Positions 4,268-43,300 of a DNA stretch of 64,000 nucleotides are shown in pieces. Position 1 is the stretch's first letter. Each line of letters opens with the position of its first letter. The notes beneath the pieces were generated by a model. It was not told the origin of the DNA. It worked only from the letters and a program-made list of their open reading frames with translations, and ran no database searches. Location: positions 13,045,700 to 13,109,699 of the forward strand of contig OX439131.1 in assembly GCA_949318235.1 (NCBI GenBank), given 5' to 3'. The DNA is from Ecdyonurus torrentis (lineage: Eukaryota > Arthropoda > Insecta > Ephemeroptera > Heptageniidae). The position numbers and the translations under genes were made by a program.

Positions 4268-6565
4268 ATGGCCTCCAACACTGGGAAAGGCATTTTTAAT
4301 TTACGTTTCAATCAAGACCAAGGTTTGTGAAACCCCTAGGCAACATATGCGCATGAATTTTTGCATTTAACATATTTCACATTTTTTAAATGTCAGATTC
4401 ACAATTTTATTTTATTGCTATCTGTTGAAATCTGAACGTAAGACAAAAAATAAAAGCAAATTTCATGATTTTCAAACAAAAATTAAAATCCACATGCATT
4501 TTACATAAACCTTGATGCGAAAGGACTGACAGAGTGGTGCAGTATTTTGTTTGATCGATTTTCTCTTTAACACATATGATGTTTTTTAAATTATCTGTAA
4601 GTTTATTTTAAACAATAAACATTGTTTTCTTTCCTTACGTTTAAAAGGACAAATTCTTTATTATTTTGACAGAAAATATGTTACATATTATGTATGTATG
4701 TGTGACACAAAAAAGAAAGCGCTTATCTGGGCTACGAAATTGTTGCTTCATATTATTTTGTAATGACGTCATCTTCGTTTGTGAATGTACATATACATAC
4801 ATACATACAATTAATAATCTAAATAGATAGGCTAACTTTGGACATTCTATTTTTTTTTATTATATTATAGTTATTATTATTTTTTTTTACATATTTATAG
4901 TCATATTTCTTTACTATGATTAGAGCGTTTATTTATTTTTTTTCTGCCAAAATTAATGACATATATTATGTATTGTTGACTCTCTCTCCCCCGGCTCCTC
5001 CTCTCTTCTTGATATTTTTTATGTATGCACACACACGATTGTGATAGTTTATTTTATCATTCAAGAATCTTGCGCTAAATTTGCAGACTTATTTTCTTAA
5101 AAGAGAAAAACACGTGCTGCATTTAAATGGTAAAATCAATTATCACAATCGTGTGTACAGTAAAAATAGTTTGCATATATATGTATATTTTAATTGCATG
5201 TACATACCTGCTAGTGTAAACAAAATTAACAATGAATGCTTAATTGTCTTATTATTTCAGGTTGTTTTTCATGTTGTATGGAGAGTGGTCTCCGAATATA
5301 TAATGTAGATCCACTAGTAGAAAAGTCTCACTATGGTAGGTTCAATAATATAAAAATATAATAAAATAAATACATAAAACAATATTAATAATAAAAACAA
5401 CTAGCTATAATTGATTCTTATAATTTCAGATATCGGCCTAGTAGGAAGTGTTGCTCATTGTGAAATGTTACATCGCACAAACTTAATTGCATTTAGTGGT
5501 GGAGCTCCAAGACCTAAGTTTGCAGACAATACAGTACTAGTCTATGATGATCATTCTAAAAAATTTGTACTTGAATTTACTTTTCCCACACAAGTTAAAG
5601 CAATTAGACTACGTAGAGATAAGTAAGTTAAAATTTGTTTTATTTGTAAATATTTAAAAATTAATAAATATTAGGAAAAAATCGTCTATGCGATAGTTGA
5701 TAATTATAAAAGATTTGATAGAAAAACGCTTATAGGAAAAATTGGGGAATTATCTCCCATTCCCCAGTTTTTCCTAATCTATCTATGATGTGTTTTTCTA
5801 TCAAATCTTTTATAAATATCATATCATATATATGTATCAATTTAAGGAAAAAACCATCGCGGTTAGGATCAATATTAAAGAAAAGGATAGAATAACCAGC
5901 AAGGGCCTTACCACAGTAGAAGTTCTATGGAGAGGTCGAAGTCTCACATGGCACAGTGTTTTGTTATAAAAAAGTTATAAAAAGTTATAAAATGAACTTT
6001 TTTATAACAAAACACTGTGCCATGCGAGACTTCGACCTCTCCATAGAACTTCTACTGTGGTAAGGCCCTTGCTGGTTATTCTATCCTTTTCTTTAATATC
6101 ATATATATATAAATATCTTTAAAAAAAATAAATATTTTTATTCATAAATATTTATAATTCTATTTTACAGGCTAGTGGTTGCATTAAGAAGACAAATTCA
6201 CGTCTTCTCGTTCCCTGAACCTGCTCAGAGGTTATTGACCCTAGAAACACGTGACAATCCCCTAGGTTTGTGTGAATTGAGTCCTCTGTCCACTGCGGAA
6301 CGGCAACTGCTTGTTTTTCCTGGACACAAAGCAGGCAGTGTACAACTTGTTGTAAGTACAATATTATGTTGATACTTGAACAACAATTGCCAGCCATCTA
6401 CATACACTATACTGCCTTGCTAGTAGAGATGGCTGAGCATCTTTGAAAACCCGCATTTATAAAAATAATACTTTTTTTTTATAATTTTAATTATTTTTAT
6501 TTTATTAAGATTGTTTGGAAAAAATTACTTTAAAATTGTAATAAAATTGGGTTACTACTAGTAAA

Positions 6566-15919: not shown

Positions 15920-28677
<12,758 letters not shown>

Positions 28678-33440: not shown

Positions 33441-36400
33441 TTTAAATTTTCATTCTTTACCAATCGGGCAGAGTGATGTACGTATAGGAAGAGACAATTA
33501 TGGGACACCTAATTTCCTATATTATATAGCTTGATGTAAAAGGAAAAATAAATAATAGTAATAAAAGAAGGGTACACTTTTACTACATGTACAGATTTGT
33601 CTTTATTGCCGACTTTTATTATTATTATTTATACTAATTTGTTTGATTGGTACCACATATGTACGTGATATGTCAAGGTATAGGGTAGGAGATTAAATGT
33701 AAGCTTCTTGGTGTGTAAGTGCCTGTAATATGAGTTTCCTATACTGTACTTCATTGTATACCTGCTGCAATAAGGATTTATTTATTTTTTAATTTTTTTT
33801 TTAATTTTTTTTATGACAAACACATTTATGGTATTGATTTTTTATCTCTTAAAAACTGTTTTACATATTTTAGGGACTGAGTGTATTGATCCAAGACCCT
33901 CAGCATGAGTTTAAAGCAAAAGTGACTGCTGCAATGGTAGCTTGGGAAAGAATAACATCTTTAGCTTCATCATCAGGGATATTGATTGATACAACGAAAC
34001 TGTTTTCCATTATCAGGTATCTAATAAATTACAACTTTTTCTGTATTAATTTGCTTTTTATATGTCAACATTTTAAGATAGTAATGAATAAAGAACAGTT
34101 TTTTAAATGTAAAATTGACATATTAGCTATACTGTATTAATTAATGCATAAAGGAGTTTGATACTAGCTAATCACTTACCTTTTATTATTTCAGTGGTAC
34201 AATGAGATTAGTATTGCATGATGATTGGGAAACAATGCCTGGAGTTATGAAAACAAAATTGGGGATAGAGCTGAAGAATTTCTTGGAGATAGTGAAGAAC
34301 AACAAATATCAGGTGGCAAATCTTCAGACGCTGATAAATATGATAGACGATCCGTGGGGACATCCAGCATGGAAATCTATCCTTCAAAATATTGACTTGC
34401 CTGAAAGTGTCAAAGGCAAGTTTGCAATTCAGCTATTTATAATCTTGATCCCGCCTTGTCATTTTAATGCAAAAAAAAGCTTTAATTATAATGTATAATT
34501 TGATTGATTAAGAAAAATAAACCACCAAGGTTTGTAAAATATAAAGAAAATAATAGAGGAAACCAGCAAGGGTCTTCATTGCTGTAATGAAGAGTCCCAT
34601 AGAGTTAGGTAAAAATCTGGCTAGATAGAGAATAAAAACTAATCCATATTGCATGGGCATAGCGTTTTGGCAATAAACTTCAAGAGTCGACGGAGTGTGT
34701 GCATCTATAAACTCTGAGAGTTGTGAGAGGAACTATGATTAATTATGACAATGTTATAGTGTTACATATATATATCGACTATCTTGAGTATAGTAAACAG
34801 CCGCCAGCATTGTTGTATTCAAATTTACATTGTAATATCACCACAGTACAAATTTGAAATAAAAATTAAGATCAACATCCTCGTAATGTGTACATATCGG
34901 ACAATAAATGTGTCAAGTTTTAAATTTTTAATTGTAATTAAAGTTAAAAATCCTCGCGGCCGTTTACTATCCGTGATGATCGATATAGTGGTTCACCTTT
35001 TTAATTATATAATATGAAATGTTATCTTCTTTGTAATTATTTTCTTGTTGGGTTTAGAGTATAAGGAGCTATAGGCCAGACATGTTGTCCAGTCCTAAAC
35101 CCTGCCCATTCAATTTTTTCCCCTATATACATTCAGATAAAATAGCTTGCCATAAATGGTTTATATCAATCTTGTTGCGAAAAAAAGGCCTATCTCGTTT
35201 TTTGTCAGTGGAAGCAAAAGGCCTATCTCTTATTTTGTCAGTGGAAGCAAAAGGCCTATCTCGTTCCCGAACGTTTTATGTAGATATGGCGCTCGAGATA
35301 GACCTTTTGCTTCCACTGACAAAATACGAGATAGGTCTTTGGCTTCCACTGACAAAATACGAGATAGGCCTTTAGCTTCCACTGACAAAAAACGAGATAA
35401 CCCTTTTTTTCGCAACAAGATCGATATGTGCATATTTTTTTTTTCTTCTCTTTGATTTGCAATGTTTTATACTGGAACAGCAAAGTGCATGCATATTCTT
35501 AACATTTAATTTTTCTTTTAAATAAATGAGATACTGTAATAAAAAGGAAAATAAACCATCGTGGTTAGGTATAATAAATTTGAAAGAGAAGGATGGGAGA
35601 GACCAGCAAGGGCTTTACCAATTGCGGGCAAACAAAACCAACCTGGGCTTTTTGTATTCAGATGGCTTGTATCTCAAAATCTGTAAAGAAAACTTCCAAA
35701 CTTTATGATACCATTTGAAAATTAATAGTAACGGCTACCTATGATAATTTTTTTTTTTAGAACTCATAACAATCAGATAAGAGACAAAATAATTACTGAA
35801 ATTAACATGGGCTCTTATATGGGACTAAAATTTAAAAAAATCATAATTTAAAATGTAGCATGGTGCCCCCCCCCCCCCCCACCCCACACACACACCAAAA
35901 AACAAAACACATTTTTGAAAATACTTTATCCTAATGTATATTACTATATATTGTGCAAAATTTCAGCTTTTTCTTTCTTTACAACTTTTTAGTAAAATCC
36001 CGTAGTGGTATATATGTACTAGTTATCGGCAGGCTCTTTTTACGGTGTTAAGTGTTAAGTTTACGTGTTTCTAACTAGAACCAACCATATTAGAATTCCG
36101 TCTACTTGCCATACCACTGCTTAAAACTCTTTTATCAGTAGAGGGGGCCGAAATAAATAGGGGTGCCGATAACTGCGACAGTGTCGGTTTGGCTGCTTTT
36201 CTCAACAATATACTATAATATATATAGTAGTATATAGGAATTTCGACCTTAAGATCCTTAAGCTGCCGATAACTAGTCCTATTACCATGGATATACCTGA
36301 TTTCCCGCTTTAATATACGTTAACATTCCCTTTATAATCATCCCCACTCCTATCCCCCTCATTACTCTCCCGATTCCTTATTCCTCTATTCCCTCCCTTA

Positions 36401-39400
36401 TTTTTGCTCATCATCTCCTTCTACACTTCCCCCACTCACCACATGTGTATATACCACAATGCAACACCTGCAGTCATTATTCATAGTTTCTCTCTGAGTC
36501 GACTGTAAGGACTGATGAAGGCATAACACACCATCTCTCTTGGAGTCTTGGAGTTTATTGCCAAAATATTTCCAATGTGTTAGTTTTTTATATCTGTGCT
36601 AGCAAGATTTTCACCAAACTATATATCGATGATGTTGCGAACAATATGTGGCAAAATAAGGCTCTCAAAATAGTATATCGACGAAATCAAATAGTAACCT
36701 CGTATCTTAGATTTTGATGTTTTCAAGTTTACAATAGCACTGTAGCTCAGAAAAAAATTACAAAAAATTAACTTTTATTTTATCCTAAGGCTCATGTATT
36801 GCACATTACTTCAGCACAGTTTCAAACTTTTCCAGCTGATGGTGTCTTTGTAATTAACTAATTAGTAACAAAAAATGAATTTTTTTGTGTAATTTTGAAA
36901 ACAATGATTTGAAAAGTGCATTTCCTCTGAAAGTACATGAGATAAAAATTTCAAACTCAAACAACCAATAAAGGAAATATTGATTATTCATGCCATGCAT
37001 ACAAAAAAAAATTGCAACCAACCCCTTTGCCAAAATATGCAAAAAACGTAACTTTGAAACTAAGGGTTTAGAAGCTGAAAATCAGTTTAGAGCCATAAAT
37101 TTGTATTGGTAAAATGATTTGATACTTTTATTGAAATAACCTTAAAATAACCCGAAATTATGATGTAAAATTCTTGAGAGCGCCTAATAAATGCAGCCCG
37201 CAGCACAATCAGCCTGTAAAATGCAACCCAGAGTACATATACTTTTTAAATAAATATATATTTCCTCCCACAACTAACTTAACAAAATAATTTGAATGGT
37301 TTCATATTATTACACAATACACAATTCTACCCCTAAAGTGATTTTCAGCTTTAAAACCCTTGTAGTCACAAAGTTACGTTTTTTGCATATTTTGGCAAAG
37401 AGGGGTTGGTTGCAATTCTTTTTTGTATGCATGGCATGAATAATCAATATTTCCTTTATTGGTTGTTTGAGTTTGAAATTTTTATCTCATGTACTTTCAG
37501 AGGAAATGCACTTTTCAAATCATTGTTTTCAAAATTACACAAAAAAATTCATTTTTTGTTACTAATTAGTTAATTACAAAGACACCATCAGCTGGAAAAG
37601 TTTGAAACTGTGCTGAAGTAATGTGCAATACATGTGCCTTACGATAAAATAAAAGTTATTTTTTTGTAATTTTTTTCTGAGCTACAGTGCTATTGTAAAC
37701 TTGAAAACATCAAAATCTGAGATACGAGGTTATAATTTGATTTCGTCGATATAATTTTCCATACAGGAAAAATACAATTGATCTATATAAAGAAACTAAT
37801 AAACTAAATATAAATAGCATGAACATTGTGGCACTATGCACTTTAATATATAGGATAATTCATAACTTAATAAAAAATGATTTTGAAATTGTATATAATA
37901 ATGAAATTCATAATATTACACAAGACAAGCTAAAGATATTCACATTGATTTCCAACGATCTAATATGGGACGAATGGCAATCTTAACCAAAGGTACTCAT
38001 TTATATAATGATCTACCAGATCAAATAAAAAATAAAAATTATATAACCTTTAAAAATTTATTAAAAAACAATGTTTTCAAAAAACAGTAATAAATATGCT
38101 AAAAAAAAAAGAAGAAAAAAAAAAAAAAAAAAAGCATTTACTACTATTCAAATGGATAATAACTATTTTTTTTTATACAAATGTGTGAAAAGACAATCAC
38201 CTAATCTTTCTTACCTTTTTTTATAATTTCTAACTATGATATTGCTTCGACACGAGCGAATAGCTCTCTGAAGTGGATTAATATATAATGACCTCAAAAC
38301 TGTATAATATGTATTCTTTATGAGTTAAATAAAATAAAAAAATAAATAAAAAATAACTCATATTTTGTCAGGCGAAGCAAAATGTGTAACTCGTTTTTTG
38401 TCAAGAAGCAAAATATGTAAGTCGTTCCCGAACGTAATGGAGATGGCGCTCGACTTACGCATATTGCTTCGCGTGACAAAAAACGACTTACACATATTGC
38501 TTAGCGTGACAAAAAACGACTTACACATTTTGCTTCGCCTGACAAAATACGAGTTACACATATTGTTTGCAACATCATTGATATGGAACTCTCTTCACTA
38601 TCTGGTAAGGCCCTTGCTGGTTTCTCCTAACCTTTTCTTTCAAATTTATCATATTTTAAATAGATGTATTACTTAAGAGTGCGCAGAACATTTTGATCAT
38701 GTTGATTGTCTTCAATGTTACAGAGGAGCTGGTGGTGGGGACAAGCCTTGAACTTGTGTTGAGACTGGAAGTGCTGTTGACGTCAGGTCATGAAGACGCT
38801 GCTCTGGAGGTTGCGTCCTTGGCCATGCACAGCTTTGTTCAGTCATACTCAAACCTGGGCAATCGATGTTGTTCTCAACACAAAATTAAGATCATTGATT
38901 GGTACACACAACTTTTATACAAGAAACAACAGCACGATGTTTTTGAGAAGGTAAAGCTTTCAGTCATATAATTATAGTTTATTAATTTATTTGGTTAATA
39001 AAAAGTTATAAATAATCAAAAATTAAAAGGGTAAAATTTGTTCAGTCTACTATTCCTGATACTGTATTTTTGTTTCATTTATTTATTAATTATACTTCTG
39101 CGTTGAACATAAAAAAAGAAAAGAAATTATACTTAAGTAAACTTCACCATTGCCTTAAATTTAATTGTAGTGTCACTTTTTATTATTATACACACACAAC
39201 TCAATGTGCTTTATTAATATTATTTATTTATTTAATTTTCCTTGGGCGATAATGTACATAAACTGATATAATATAAATTATGATATATTTAAAAAAAAAG
39301 AGAGGTCTCAAATCTTTCATTTTTGCATAGTCCACTACAAAGGTCCAATTTTCACTTGATCTTTCTCTCTCTCTCTAACTCTCTAGCTCTCTAGCTCTGG

Positions 39401-40288
39401 GAAAAAAATGCACCAAACAGGTAATTTTTTCTCCAGGTTAAAATTAATCAAGCATTAGACATTATAGCTGTGAGCACCCTTGATTTATAACTATTAGATA
39501 TAAAATTGATATTTGAAGAAAATATTTTGAATGTATTGTTTTTATTTCAGGGCCTTCCTCTGCCTATACAAGACCCTCAGCTTGAGTACTTAGCCAAAGT
39601 GAGTGCTGCTTTGTTTGCTTGGGAAAGACAAAAGTACTTGCCTGCTTTCAATGACATGAATAAAATGCAGTCAATTATCAGGTAAATAAAATGAGAGCTT
39701 CACTTTATATTAAAATGATGTACAGCAGCTCTGGCCAAAAGTTCCCAAATGATTTGCATAGGCAATCTGCAAAGCACACGATGTTGTCTTTATGAGAAAA
39801 TGCAGCGGCTGCTGCTGCCCCAGTCAGGAACTTTTGTCCAGAGCTGTACTTGTGCTAATTTGGTTTTTGAAGTACTGTAATCCAAACTAATAAAAATAAT
39901 AACCCTATATAGTTTTTTTTTCCTTCGATCACTAAACAGAATTAAGTAGTGCCTTAAAGTTGCATGATGTTTCTATTTAGAGAGAGAGATTAAGGAAAAT
40001 AAACCATCGCAATTAGGTATGATAAATTTGAAAGAAAAGGATAGGAGAAACCAGCATGAAGGGCCTTACTATAGTGAGAGAGTCCCATAGTTGAGTGAAA
40101 ATCTTGCTAGCACAGTTTTCATGTCCTTGCTAAAAATTTATGTAGGCTACAATTATTAATTTTACAATAAGAATATATAGCCTAATATATTTTTGTTATT
40201 ATTATTATTATTTAAGGTAAGTATATTATTATAGAAATTTCAATTAACTCATTATAATTTATAATTTATAATTATTGCACTAATATAT

Positions 40289-40319
<31 letters not shown>

Positions 40320-43300
40320 CTGAGATGACCCCCTTTGTTCCCCTTTCTCACTACATTTACTGGAATATACTAATATCTGAAATATTTATTAAATGTTCAT
40401 ATATATAATATTTTATAATGTTCTTGTGTTTCAGTGGTACAATGAGGTTGGTACTCCATGATTATTGGAAAACAGTGCCTGGAGTTCTAAAAAATAAACT
40501 GAATCAGCAGCTGAAACATTTCTCAAAGATTGTAGAGAACAACAAAAATCAAGCTGTGCTGCTCCTGGCATTGATGAAAATGATCAAGGATCCCTGGGGC
40601 CATCCAACATGGCAGTCCATCCTTAACAATGTCAACCTGTCTGACAGTGTTAATAAAGGCAAGTTTGATTTTTTAATCAACTTCTTTTTGTAGTATTGGA
40701 TATTATGTTTGTAATTGTAGGAATAAATAAAATTATAAAAAATAGGCGTATTAGGAAAAAACCAACGCGGTTAGTATTAATAAGTTAAAAAAATATTTAG
40801 AAAATAGTTGGTAGAGATTAGAGCACGTTAAATTGAAAATTAATAAAACGCGAAAATTCTCTAATTTAAATAGTAAATTGGGACTAGGGATCAAATACTC
40901 TAGCTTGAGCTAGTTAAAAAGTAGACGTTAAAGGGATGGAGGTATAGTGTCAAAATAAAATACGATGTGCCTAGCATCTCACGTTCTCACACTACGTCAA
41001 AGACACAACATTATAAAACAGCATCAGACTTACTCTTTGCCTTAGACCGGTTTCATCCTTTACCTAGGACTCATCAGTAAGGCTCGGCAGAGAGCTCTGT
41101 ACAGCTAGAGATGGCTCACACCACATCTGCTAACTGACTGAGCTGAGGAAGCAAGTGGCAGTCGCGTTTTTATACGCGATGCCCCCCGCAGCTGCACGCG
41201 CTGATTGGTTAAAATCGCGCGCGCAAACTCGGCTTGCTGTTTAAAACCTCTCGTCCTCACACTGTAATATAAAATCGTGTCTAAGAGGGGTGTAAGACAG
41301 GCAGCCAGCAAGCAATATGTGTCCTCCCTCACTTCCCAGAGTTCCCCAACTCTAGAAAGATCGCGAGAGCACTACGCCTACCGACTGCACAGTATCGTGA
41401 TTCACGCTAGTTACATCGCTTTATATGTTGACACTGGGGTAGGAAAAGCAAAAAGATAATAGAGTAGGAGAGATAGAATAAATATTATGCGCTTTGGCAT
41501 ATAGTTTAATTAATTTAGTACGTGCTCTTATTGACGTTGGCAAGTAAAAGGGCCGAATAAAATAAAAATGAAAGAATATTATTTACAAAAGCTTAAAATT
41601 AAAAAAAAAAGATCGACTTGGCGATAATATGCGTATTAGGAAAAAACCATTGCGGTTAGTATTAATAAGTTAAAAAAATATTTAGAAAATAGTTGGTAGA
41701 GATTAGAGCACATTAAATTGAAAATTAATAAAACGCGAAAATTCTCTAATTTAAATAGTAAATTGGGACTAGGGATCAAATACTCTAGCTTGAGCTAGTT
41801 AAAAAGTAGACGTTAAAGGGATGGAGGTATAGTGTCAAAATAAAATACGATGTGCCTAGCATCTCACGTTCTCACACTACGTCAAAGACACAACATTATA
41901 AAACAGCATCAGACTTACTCTTTGCCTTAGACCGGTTTCGTCCTTTAATTACCTAGGACTCATCAGTAAGGCTCGGCAGAGAGCTCTGTACAGCTAGAGA
42001 TGGCCACTTGCTTCCTCAGCTCAGTCAGTTAGCAGATGTGGTGTGAGCCATCTCTAGCTGTACAGAGCTCTCTGCCGAGCCTTACTGATGAGTCCTATAA
42101 GGTAATTAAAGGACGAAACCGGTCTAAGGCAAAGAGTAAGTCTGATGCTGTTTTATAATGTTGTGTCTTTGACGTAGTGTGAGAACGTGAGATGCTAGGC
42201 ACATCGTATTTTATTTTGACACTATACCTCCATCCCTTTAACGTCTACTTTTTAACTAGCTCAAGCTAGAGTATTTGATCCCTAGTCCCAATTTACTATT
42301 TAAATTAGAGAATTTTCGCGTTTTATTAATTTTCAATTTAACGTGCTCTAATCTCTACCAACTATTTTCTAAATATTTTTTTTAACTTATTTATAAAAAA
42401 TAGGATTTTTTTTTTTTTTTTTTTTATATGTCCTAAAATATATTTTAATTTTTAACACACATACTGCAATTGGAGTAATAATTATTTTACATTAAAAATA
42501 ATAATTATTTTACATTAAAAATAATCAGTAAAAATATTTGATAGAAAAACACGTTGATAGCTGGGGGGGGGGGGGGGGGGGGAGGAATGGGAGATAGTAA
42601 TGAGCTCTAATGAGCTCATTTCCCAATTTTTCCTAATCTGTGAGTTTTTCTATCAAATCTTTTTATTATCAATCATATATAGCATATAGGCACATTTTCC
42701 TTGACATTTATTTCATTATAAAATAGATATAAAATTGTGTAATACTGATGTTTTGCCTGATGTCTGTTAACAGAGGAGCTGGTGGTGGGGACGACAAGCC
42801 TTGAGCTTGTGTTGAGACTGGAAGTGTTGTTGATGTCAGGTCTTGAAGACGCTGCTCTGGAGGTTGCGTCCTTGGCCATGCACAGCTTTGTTCAGGCAAA
42901 CTCAAACCTGGGCAAACAAAGCTCTTCTCAACACAAAATTCAGATCATTGATTGGTACACACAACTCTTATACAAGAAACAGCAACAAAAATACATTTTT
43001 GAGAAGGTTGGTTTGCATATATTTGTCATATAAAGAGATTTCTAAACATTTGTAATCTTTTAATAAAATTTTAATTTCTAACTGAGCTGGGAGGAGGAGG
43101 GGGTGGGGGTGGGGTATTAATCTCGATTTCAAAGAACTATACTTGCTACAGTCATGTACAGTAAAATAGTTGATATTATATATTTTCCAAACAACAAGAC
43201 TTTAAAATAATATATTGTTGTTTCATTCTTAAATTTTAAAATGGAAAAGTTATATAATTCAAACTGCATGTATATAATTTTATAAGTTATTTGTTAAGTA

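What the first reader, a model, noticed from the sequence alone, without database searches (positions are those of the whole stretch)
40747..42390. Composite element with three hammerhead-bearing repeats and a perfect 14-bp target duplication
Two ~370-bp direct repeats around a ~515-bp non-coding core, plus a third inverted, truncated repeat starting exactly at the end of repeat B, all lie between two perfect copies of TTATAAAAAATAGG. Each repeat has a hammerhead motif. Direct repeats plus an inverted truncated copy and a target duplication of unusual length match the untidy structures known for Penelope-like elements, while the size and lack of coding sequence match retrozymes. A non-autonomous element combining both sets of traits in an arthropod intron may be a new family.
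Basis: partly seen in the sequence, partly recalled or inferred. Interest (0 to 1): 0.9.

Follow-up and report, generated by a model that had tools for sequence, protein, structure and literature searches.

The report
Ribozyme-bearing Penelope hitchhiker element
A 1.6-kb DNA insertion with three hammerhead-ribozyme motifs and no recognised protein domain is laid out like a Penelope retrotransposon insertion and shares its end sequence with other insertions nearby, so it was likely copied in by a Penelope enzyme encoded elsewhere, which would link ribozyme elements to their suspected driver.

Summary
The structure is real. Direct repeats A (40747-41115) and B (41632-42004) flank a 516-bp core; an inverted copy C (42003-42390) follows; perfect 14-bp duplications bracket all. 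A and B read on the minus strand. Each copy has a type I hammerhead motif (below Rfam's gathering score). Two corrections: C also carries 44 nt of core, and it lacks the last 32-33 nt of the repeat. That missing tail is the key. Two other insertions in this window (5834-6095; 35525-38653), whose interiors do not match this element, carry a homologous tail on one arm, lack it on the inverted arm, and have 13- and 9-bp duplications. This is the published Penelope layout: an inverted pLTR shorter by the tail, and two copying start sites bounding the tail. I read it as a non-autonomous element moved in trans by a Penelope-like enzyme and copied from tandem or circular RNA of 885-nt units. Enzyme, RNA circles, host and other genomic copies are untested: the genome search did not complete 14 times.

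The parts
40733..40746 (.). Left copy of the 14-bp target duplication TTATAAAAAATAGG
40747..41115 (-). Repeat A (pLTR-like), carries the 3' tail
40747..40779 (-). 3' tail of A, absent from C; homologous to tails of E2, E4 and two more insert ends
41039..41083 (-). Hammerhead motif of A; predicted cut between 41045 and 41044
41116..41631 (-). Core, 516 bp; two stretches scanned for Pfam domains, none found
41135..41208 (-). Predicted promoter: CCAAT 41208, TATAAA 41174, initiators TCAGC/TCAGT 41146, 41141, 41137
   Evidence: consensus motifs recalled
41632..42004 (-). Repeat B, continues into the core
41924..41972 (-). Hammerhead motif of B; predicted cut between 41930 and 41929; 885 nt from the cut in A
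42003..42390 (+). Inverted copy C: 44 nt of core, then the repeat without its tail
42079..42130 (+). Hammerhead motif of C; predicted cut between 42124 and 42125
42391..42404 (.). Right copy of the 14-bp target duplication
5834..6095 (-). E2, second insertion with a homologous tail, tail-less inverted arm and 13-bp duplication ATATCATATATAT (5821-5833, 6096-6108)
35525..38653 (-). E4, composite insertion with a homologous tail, short (51-nt) tail-less inverted arm at 38603-38653 and 9-bp duplication TTTTAAATA (35516-35524, 38654-38662)
5672..5811 (-). E3, possible further case: foldback with a tail-like end and 8-bp duplication ATAAATAT; tail match not significant alone

Best explanation
It is a retroelement built of 885-nt units with hammerhead motifs and no recognised protein domain, likely inserted by the enzyme of a Penelope-like element encoded elsewhere, which is predicted to have copied the element's RNA from two start sites on either side of a short 3' tail, one for each cut target strand. 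Shown in the sequence: in the sense (minus) strand the order is duplication - inverted C - B - core - A - duplication; A ends with the tail and C starts just inside it; a homologous tail, but not the interior, is found in two other insertions with the same end anatomy. Inferred: (1) tandem or circular RNA of repeat+core units is made, and hammerheads, pairing as dimers through the palindrome ACCGGU, cut it into 885-nt units. (2) The enzyme recognises the tail and cuts an AT-rich target with a 14-nt stagger. (3) One target end primes at the end of the tail and copies A, core and B (1.42 units). (4) The other primes 32-33 nt further in and makes C. (5) The two cDNAs join at a 2-nt overlap and filling the stagger gives the 14-bp duplication.
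For: Layout and duplication. A 41-bp match of the repeat's 3' end to E2 (E 4e-6), the only match outside the element at E <= 0.01. Profile searches both ways: the A+B model finds E2 (E 4.8e-6) and weakly E4 (0.027); the E2-family model finds A (7.6e-5) and B (1.7e-4). E2 and E4 have tail-less inverted arms that abut 13- and 9-bp duplications. Published anatomy: inverted 5' pLTR 37 bp shorter than the direct ones, 31-bp tail, 9-bp duplication, and a gene moved in trans by pLTRs (PMC3846280, passages, Discussion); two start sites bounding the tail, both target strands cut and extended, AT-rich targets (PMC11167929, parts 1-2 of 4). Minimal hammerheads are conserved in Penelope-like elements (PMC6155905, PMC7761336, passages). 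A with B co-fold as a double hammerhead.
Against: No Penelope enzyme seen: only 20 of 257 stop-free stretches were scanned for domains and the genome search did not complete. Hammerhead cut to tail end is 298 nt here versus 85-92 nt in the anole element (derived). Two of five insert ends with the tail (34508, 39990) have no tail-less partner or duplication in the ranges tried. Inverted repeats are common here: 44 pairs listed, most without this tail. Minimum-energy folds of single hammerheads pair part of the catalytic core, and B with B does not fold as a double hammerhead. The tail hairpin is not in every predicted fold.
Confidence: 0.7

Rival explanations
1. It is an internally deleted copy of one autonomous Penelope-like element: A, B and C are that element's own pLTRs and the core is what is left after loss of the ORF. 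It inserted by the same two-site copying, but is a decayed member and not an independent ribozyme family.
For: Layout equals that of full Penelope inserts; short nonautonomous Penelope elements are in print for butterflies (PMC6685494, passage).
Against: No trace of reverse transcriptase or GIY-YIG domain in the two core stretches scanned; hammerhead-to-tail distance differs from the anole element. Neither is decisive.
Confidence: 0.19
2. It is an animal non-LTR retrozyme moved by a LINE rather than by a Penelope-like element; the inverted copy arose by twin priming as in L1.
For: Type I hammerhead, low GC (39%) and a duplication longer than 4 bp fit retrozymes; PMC7229834 allows LINEs or Penelope-like elements as movers.
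Against: No poly(A) or simple repeat at the sense 3' end; the start of C at a fixed place inside a shared tail fits the Penelope tail.
Confidence: 0.06
3. It is a foldback DNA transposon whose inverted repeats are terminal repeats, with a ribozyme motif carried along.
For: Long inverted repeats with a target duplication; many foldbacks in the window.
Against: The two ends are unequal by the tail in E1, E2 and E4; duplication lengths differ (14, 13, 9 bp); a second direct repeat is not expected.
Confidence: 0.03
4. It is an assembly artefact or chance stacking of independent insertions.
For: The 885-bp periodicity could come from a collapsed tandem array.
Against: A perfect 14-bp duplication brackets the whole, and the three copies differ from one another.
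Confidence: 0.02

Closest known systems
Penelope/Poseidon-type Penelope-like elements (Pen2a_Av, PMC3846280; PAc of the green anole, PMC11167929)
   Same: Direct pLTRs, inverted tail-less pLTR at the 5' end, ~30-40-bp tail, variable duplication, AT-rich target, minimal hammerhead, TATA and initiator motifs
   Different: No recognised ORF; hammerhead 298 nt (not 85-92 nt) from the tail's end; duplication 14 bp versus 8-10 bp in the Adineta vaga passages seen
Pen3a pLTRs that moved an NRPS gene in trans (PMC3846280)
   Different: There the cargo is a host gene; here a core without a recognised domain that carries a predicted promoter, with hammerheads in the repeats
Animal non-LTR retrozymes (PMC7229834)
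   Same: Type I hammerhead, low GC, no recognised protein, tandem unit, duplication longer than 4 bp
   Different: 885-nt unit instead of ~170-400 nt; minimal hammerhead without helix III; inverted copy; circles not shown
Plant LTR retrozymes (described in PMC7761336, passages)
   Same: ~350-bp hammerhead-bearing repeats around a 300-700-bp non-coding region
   Different: Type I not type III hammerhead, 14-bp not 4-bp duplication, no tRNA-Met primer string found
Short nonautonomous Penelope elements of heliconiine butterflies (PMC6685494, one passage seen)
   Same: Non-autonomous and assigned to Penelope
   Different: No structure or hammerhead described in the passage seen, so no closer comparison was possible

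Membership tests
Penelope-like element (autonomous) | ORF with reverse transcriptase and GIY-YIG endonuclease | tested here: not met
   Two core stretches (41108-41371 -, 41268-41456 +) have no Pfam family at E <= 1; longest stop-free stretch of the core itself 85 aa
Penelope-like insertion, non-autonomous | Direct pLTRs plus adjacent 5' inverted pLTR shorter by ~30-40 bp | tested here: met
   C lacks 32-33 nt at its outer end and overlaps B by 2 nt
Penelope-like insertion, non-autonomous | Tail of ~30-40 bp at the 3' end | tested here: met
   32-33 nt in E1, 38-42 nt in E2, up to 45 nt in E4 where the end is set only by the duplication
Penelope-like insertion, non-autonomous | Variable-length target duplication in AT-rich DNA | tested here: met
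   14, 13 and 9 bp; flanks 78-90% AT versus 70% for the window
Penelope-like insertion, non-autonomous | Minimal type I hammerhead in the repeat | tested here: met
   sub-gathering Rfam score; helix III reduced to ACCGGU; activity not tested
Penelope-like insertion, non-autonomous | Partner enzyme in the same genome sharing the tail | not tested
   The genome search unanswered in 14 tries
Animal non-LTR retrozyme | Tandem unit of ~170-400 nt | tested here: not met
   Unit 885 nt
Animal non-LTR retrozyme | Canonical type I hammerhead with loop-loop contacts | tested here: inconclusive
   Helix III minimal and helix I a plain 6-bp stem; contacts not modelled
Animal non-LTR retrozyme | Expressed as circular RNA | not testable with these tools
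   No RNA data; circular fold is suggestive only
Plant LTR retrozyme | Type III hammerhead, 4-bp duplication, tRNA-Met primer site | tested here: not met
   Type I match; 14-bp duplication; recalled primer string absent

The most novel reading that the evidence does not exclude
A Penelope counterpart of the SINE-LINE partnership: unrelated families without proteins, one of them an 885-nt self-cleaving RNA circle, ride on one Penelope-like enzyme because they share a ~35-nt tail that sets its two start sites.
Probability: 0.35. Interest if true: 0.78.

Novelty: new variant of a known kind. Interest (0 to 1): 0.6.

Why it matters
PMC7229834 names Penelope-like elements as a strong candidate to move animal retrozymes, on indirect grounds. 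This insertion combines retrozyme-like content with Penelope-type insertion anatomy, and a short tail shared by otherwise unrelated insertions points to what the enzyme may recognise. That makes the proposal directly testable: put the tail on another RNA and ask whether a Penelope enzyme inserts it. The unequal ends are also a genomic trace of two start sites, one per target strand, as seen in vitro for the anole enzyme.

Tried and rejected
Genome-wide copies: the genome search on the window's own assembly was unanswered 14 times, so copies were not counted and no tandem arrays or enzyme were sought.

Public collections: exact patterns from the element and tails gave 0 matches in viral contigs and in prokaryote genomes. 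One 17-base pattern gave two viral-contig matches with no further similarity, taken as chance. A protein search with the SUZ12-like exon scored none of 584 candidates.

E3 (5672-5811) was first counted as a further tail family. The tail model does not list it at E <= 20 and the A+B model gives E 4.6, so it stays only a possible case. Its hairpin ATCG..CGAT would be compensatory to AACC..GGTT, but that is one sequence.

Tail hairpin as a conserved structure: of the six tails besides E3, the minimum-energy fold contains AACC/GGUU in B, E2, E4 and 34508; A prefers a shifted 6-bp helix around the same loop; 39990 folds otherwise (longer stretches). Too few sequences for a covariation test, and none was run.

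Folding as proof of an RNA circle: the sense unit has z -7.7 (40 shuffles) and -6.2 (30), antisense -1.8; but four control stretches of the window gave -4.1, -2.6, -2.6 and -6.3 (15 shuffles each), the repeat alone +0.3 and the core alone -2.7. Suggestive only.

Full report
WHAT IS THERE. In plus-strand order: duplication TTATAAAAAATAGG (40733-40746), repeat A (40747-41115), core (41116-41631), repeat B (41632-42004), inverted copy C (42003-42390), second duplication (42391-42404). A and B read on the minus strand, so in the sense direction the element is inverted C - B - core - A. A-to-B spacing is 885 bp over the first 300 bp of the repeat, and 885 nt separate the two predicted hammerhead cuts; B-core-A is about 1.42 units. 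C is the reverse complement of the last 44 nt of core followed by the repeat, without the repeat's final 32-33 nt.

HAMMERHEADS. Each copy has a type I hammerhead motif (3 matches, none in 100 shuffles). Rfam scores of 30.0, 29.9 and 25.1 bits are below the curated 34; in the 64-kb scan A is not listed. Helix III is only the palindrome ACCGGU, like the minimal hammerheads of Penelope-like elements, which lack helix III and may cleave as dimers (PMC6155905 and PMC7761336, passages). A with B co-folds into a double hammerhead. Against this, B with B does not, and the minimum-energy fold of each single copy pairs part of the catalytic core. Activity is untested.

THE TAIL. The last 41 bp of the repeat match 5845-5883 (E 4e-6), the only match outside the element at E <= 0.01. 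That is the end of a 262-bp insertion (E2), itself an inverted repeat in which one arm carries the tail and the other stops short of it and abuts a 13-bp duplication. Relatives of E2 align at 34508-34576, 35544-35620 and 39990-40075, and a tail-less inverted piece at 38603-38653. The 35544 copy and the 38603-38653 piece are bracketed by a 9-bp duplication that abuts the tail-less end (E4). E4 is less clean: its inverted arm is only 51 nt at 88%, its left end is set by the duplication, and other repeats lie inside it. In a null of 4000 random pairs, 9 bp or more arose in 0.175% and 13 bp or more in none (E4 was searched over a somewhat larger grid than the null). Profiles link the groups both ways: the A+B model finds E2 (4.8e-6), E4 weakly (0.027) and 39990 not significantly (1.7); the model of E2, E4, 39990 and 34508 finds A (7.6e-5) and B (1.7e-4). 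Five insert ends thus carry the tail (E1, E2, E4, 34508, 39990); three of five have a tail-less partner and a duplication, and for the other two I found neither in the ranges tried. Foldbacks are common here (44 pairs listed), and most lack this tail, so it is the combination that counts. E3 (5672-5811) is only a possible further case.

HAIRPIN. In the sense strand A, B, E2, E4 and 34508 contain AACC and GGUU around a short loop, and 39990 has AAUU and GGUU. The predicted minimum-energy fold uses AACC/GGUU in B, E2, E4 and 34508, a shifted helix in A and another fold in 39990. A tail hairpin is therefore likely but not proven.

HOW IT MOST LIKELY WORKS. In the rotifer Adineta vaga a typical Penelope insert has two direct pLTRs, an inverted 5' pLTR 37 bp shorter than these and overlapping the direct one by 15 bp, a 31-bp tail and a 9-bp duplication; Pen3a pLTRs moved a gene in trans (PMC3846280; passages, Discussion). 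The anole enzyme cuts and extends both strands and starts copying at two internal sites that bound the tail, in an AC-rich stem-loop, at AT-rich targets (PMC11167929; parts 1-2 of 4). Applied here: one target end primes at the tail's end and copies A, core and B; the other primes 32-33 nt further in and copies C. At the first junction the target ends in AATAGG where the next unit has AATATG; at the second it ends in TATAA where the element has TATTA. Both look like short priming matches (sequence). The authors of PMC3846280 favour self-priming on an antisense template for inverted structures; my data do not exclude that route.

TEMPLATE. C runs to core position 41159, 15-24 nt upstream of predicted initiators (A at 41144, 41139, 41135). 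If those start sites are right, C's template was a read-through of a tandem array or an RNA circle and not a transcript begun there. This rests on recalled consensus motifs. On the sense strand the only TATAAA followed within 40 nt by TCAGC or TCAGT is at 41174, between B and A, so from that promoter this copy alone would not make an 885-nt unit; outside transcription or an array would be needed.

COPY DIFFERENCES. The three repeats differ at few places, and 7 gap columns and one substitution sit in the hammerhead stem-loop II region. Either copying slipped there on each pass or the templates differed; I cannot tell which.

LIMITS. Only 20 of 257 stop-free stretches (55 aa or more, after dropping low-complexity ones) were scanned for domains. 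The hammerhead-to-tail distance (298 nt) differs from the anole element (85-92 nt, derived).

NOVELTY. Non-autonomous Penelope elements are in print (PMC6685494, passage), as is a gene moved by pLTRs (PMC3846280). In the titles and abstract starts listed for Penelope-like with hammerhead (22 of 22 papers), retrozyme (30 of 34), Penelope structure (25 of 128, 15 of 316), non-autonomous Penelope (9 of 9), hammerhead with arthropod terms (15 of 120), Penelope with twin priming (3 of 3) and pseudo-LTR with hammerhead (12 of 40) I saw no report of a hammerhead element of this kind with a Penelope-type insertion, or of a tail shared by unrelated families. The library lacks most subscription journals, including two key papers on Penelope hammerheads, so this is weak evidence of absence. 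PMC7229834 (parts 1-4 of 6) already reports type I hammerhead repeats in arthropods and proposes Penelope-like elements as movers. I therefore call this a new variant of a known kind.

Noticed in passing
38660-38968 and 42761-43030 (+): Two host exons on either side of the element translate to closely similar peptides (EELVVGTSLELVLRLEVLL...), an exon duplication within the gene.
   Followed up: partly
41672-42382: The host transcript would carry B and C as a near-perfect inverted repeat (283 and 51 nt blocks at 100%), and the hammerhead of C in sense orientation, so intron RNA may fold, be edited or be cut.
   Followed up: no
42529-42665: Foldback resembling E3 without a tail, right beside the element.
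   Followed up: partly
35163-35427 and 38354-38556: Another foldback family with subrepeats around tens of bp, inside or beside E4, without this tail.
   Followed up: no
36667-37758: Inverted repeat with arms of about 450 nt, 94% alike, inside E4, probably a nested element.
   Followed up: no
41039-41083, 41924-41972, 42079-42130: The three ribozyme copies of one insertion differ mainly by small indels in stem-loop II, a possible trace of slippage during copying.
   Followed up: partly
27829-28674 (+): VEFS-box ORF, SUZ12-like polycomb protein (Pfam PF09733, E 1.5e-31).
   Followed up: no
25741-26496 (+): 252-aa open stretch that looks like the end of an RTE-type LINE polyprotein (recalled resemblance); no Pfam match.
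   Followed up: no
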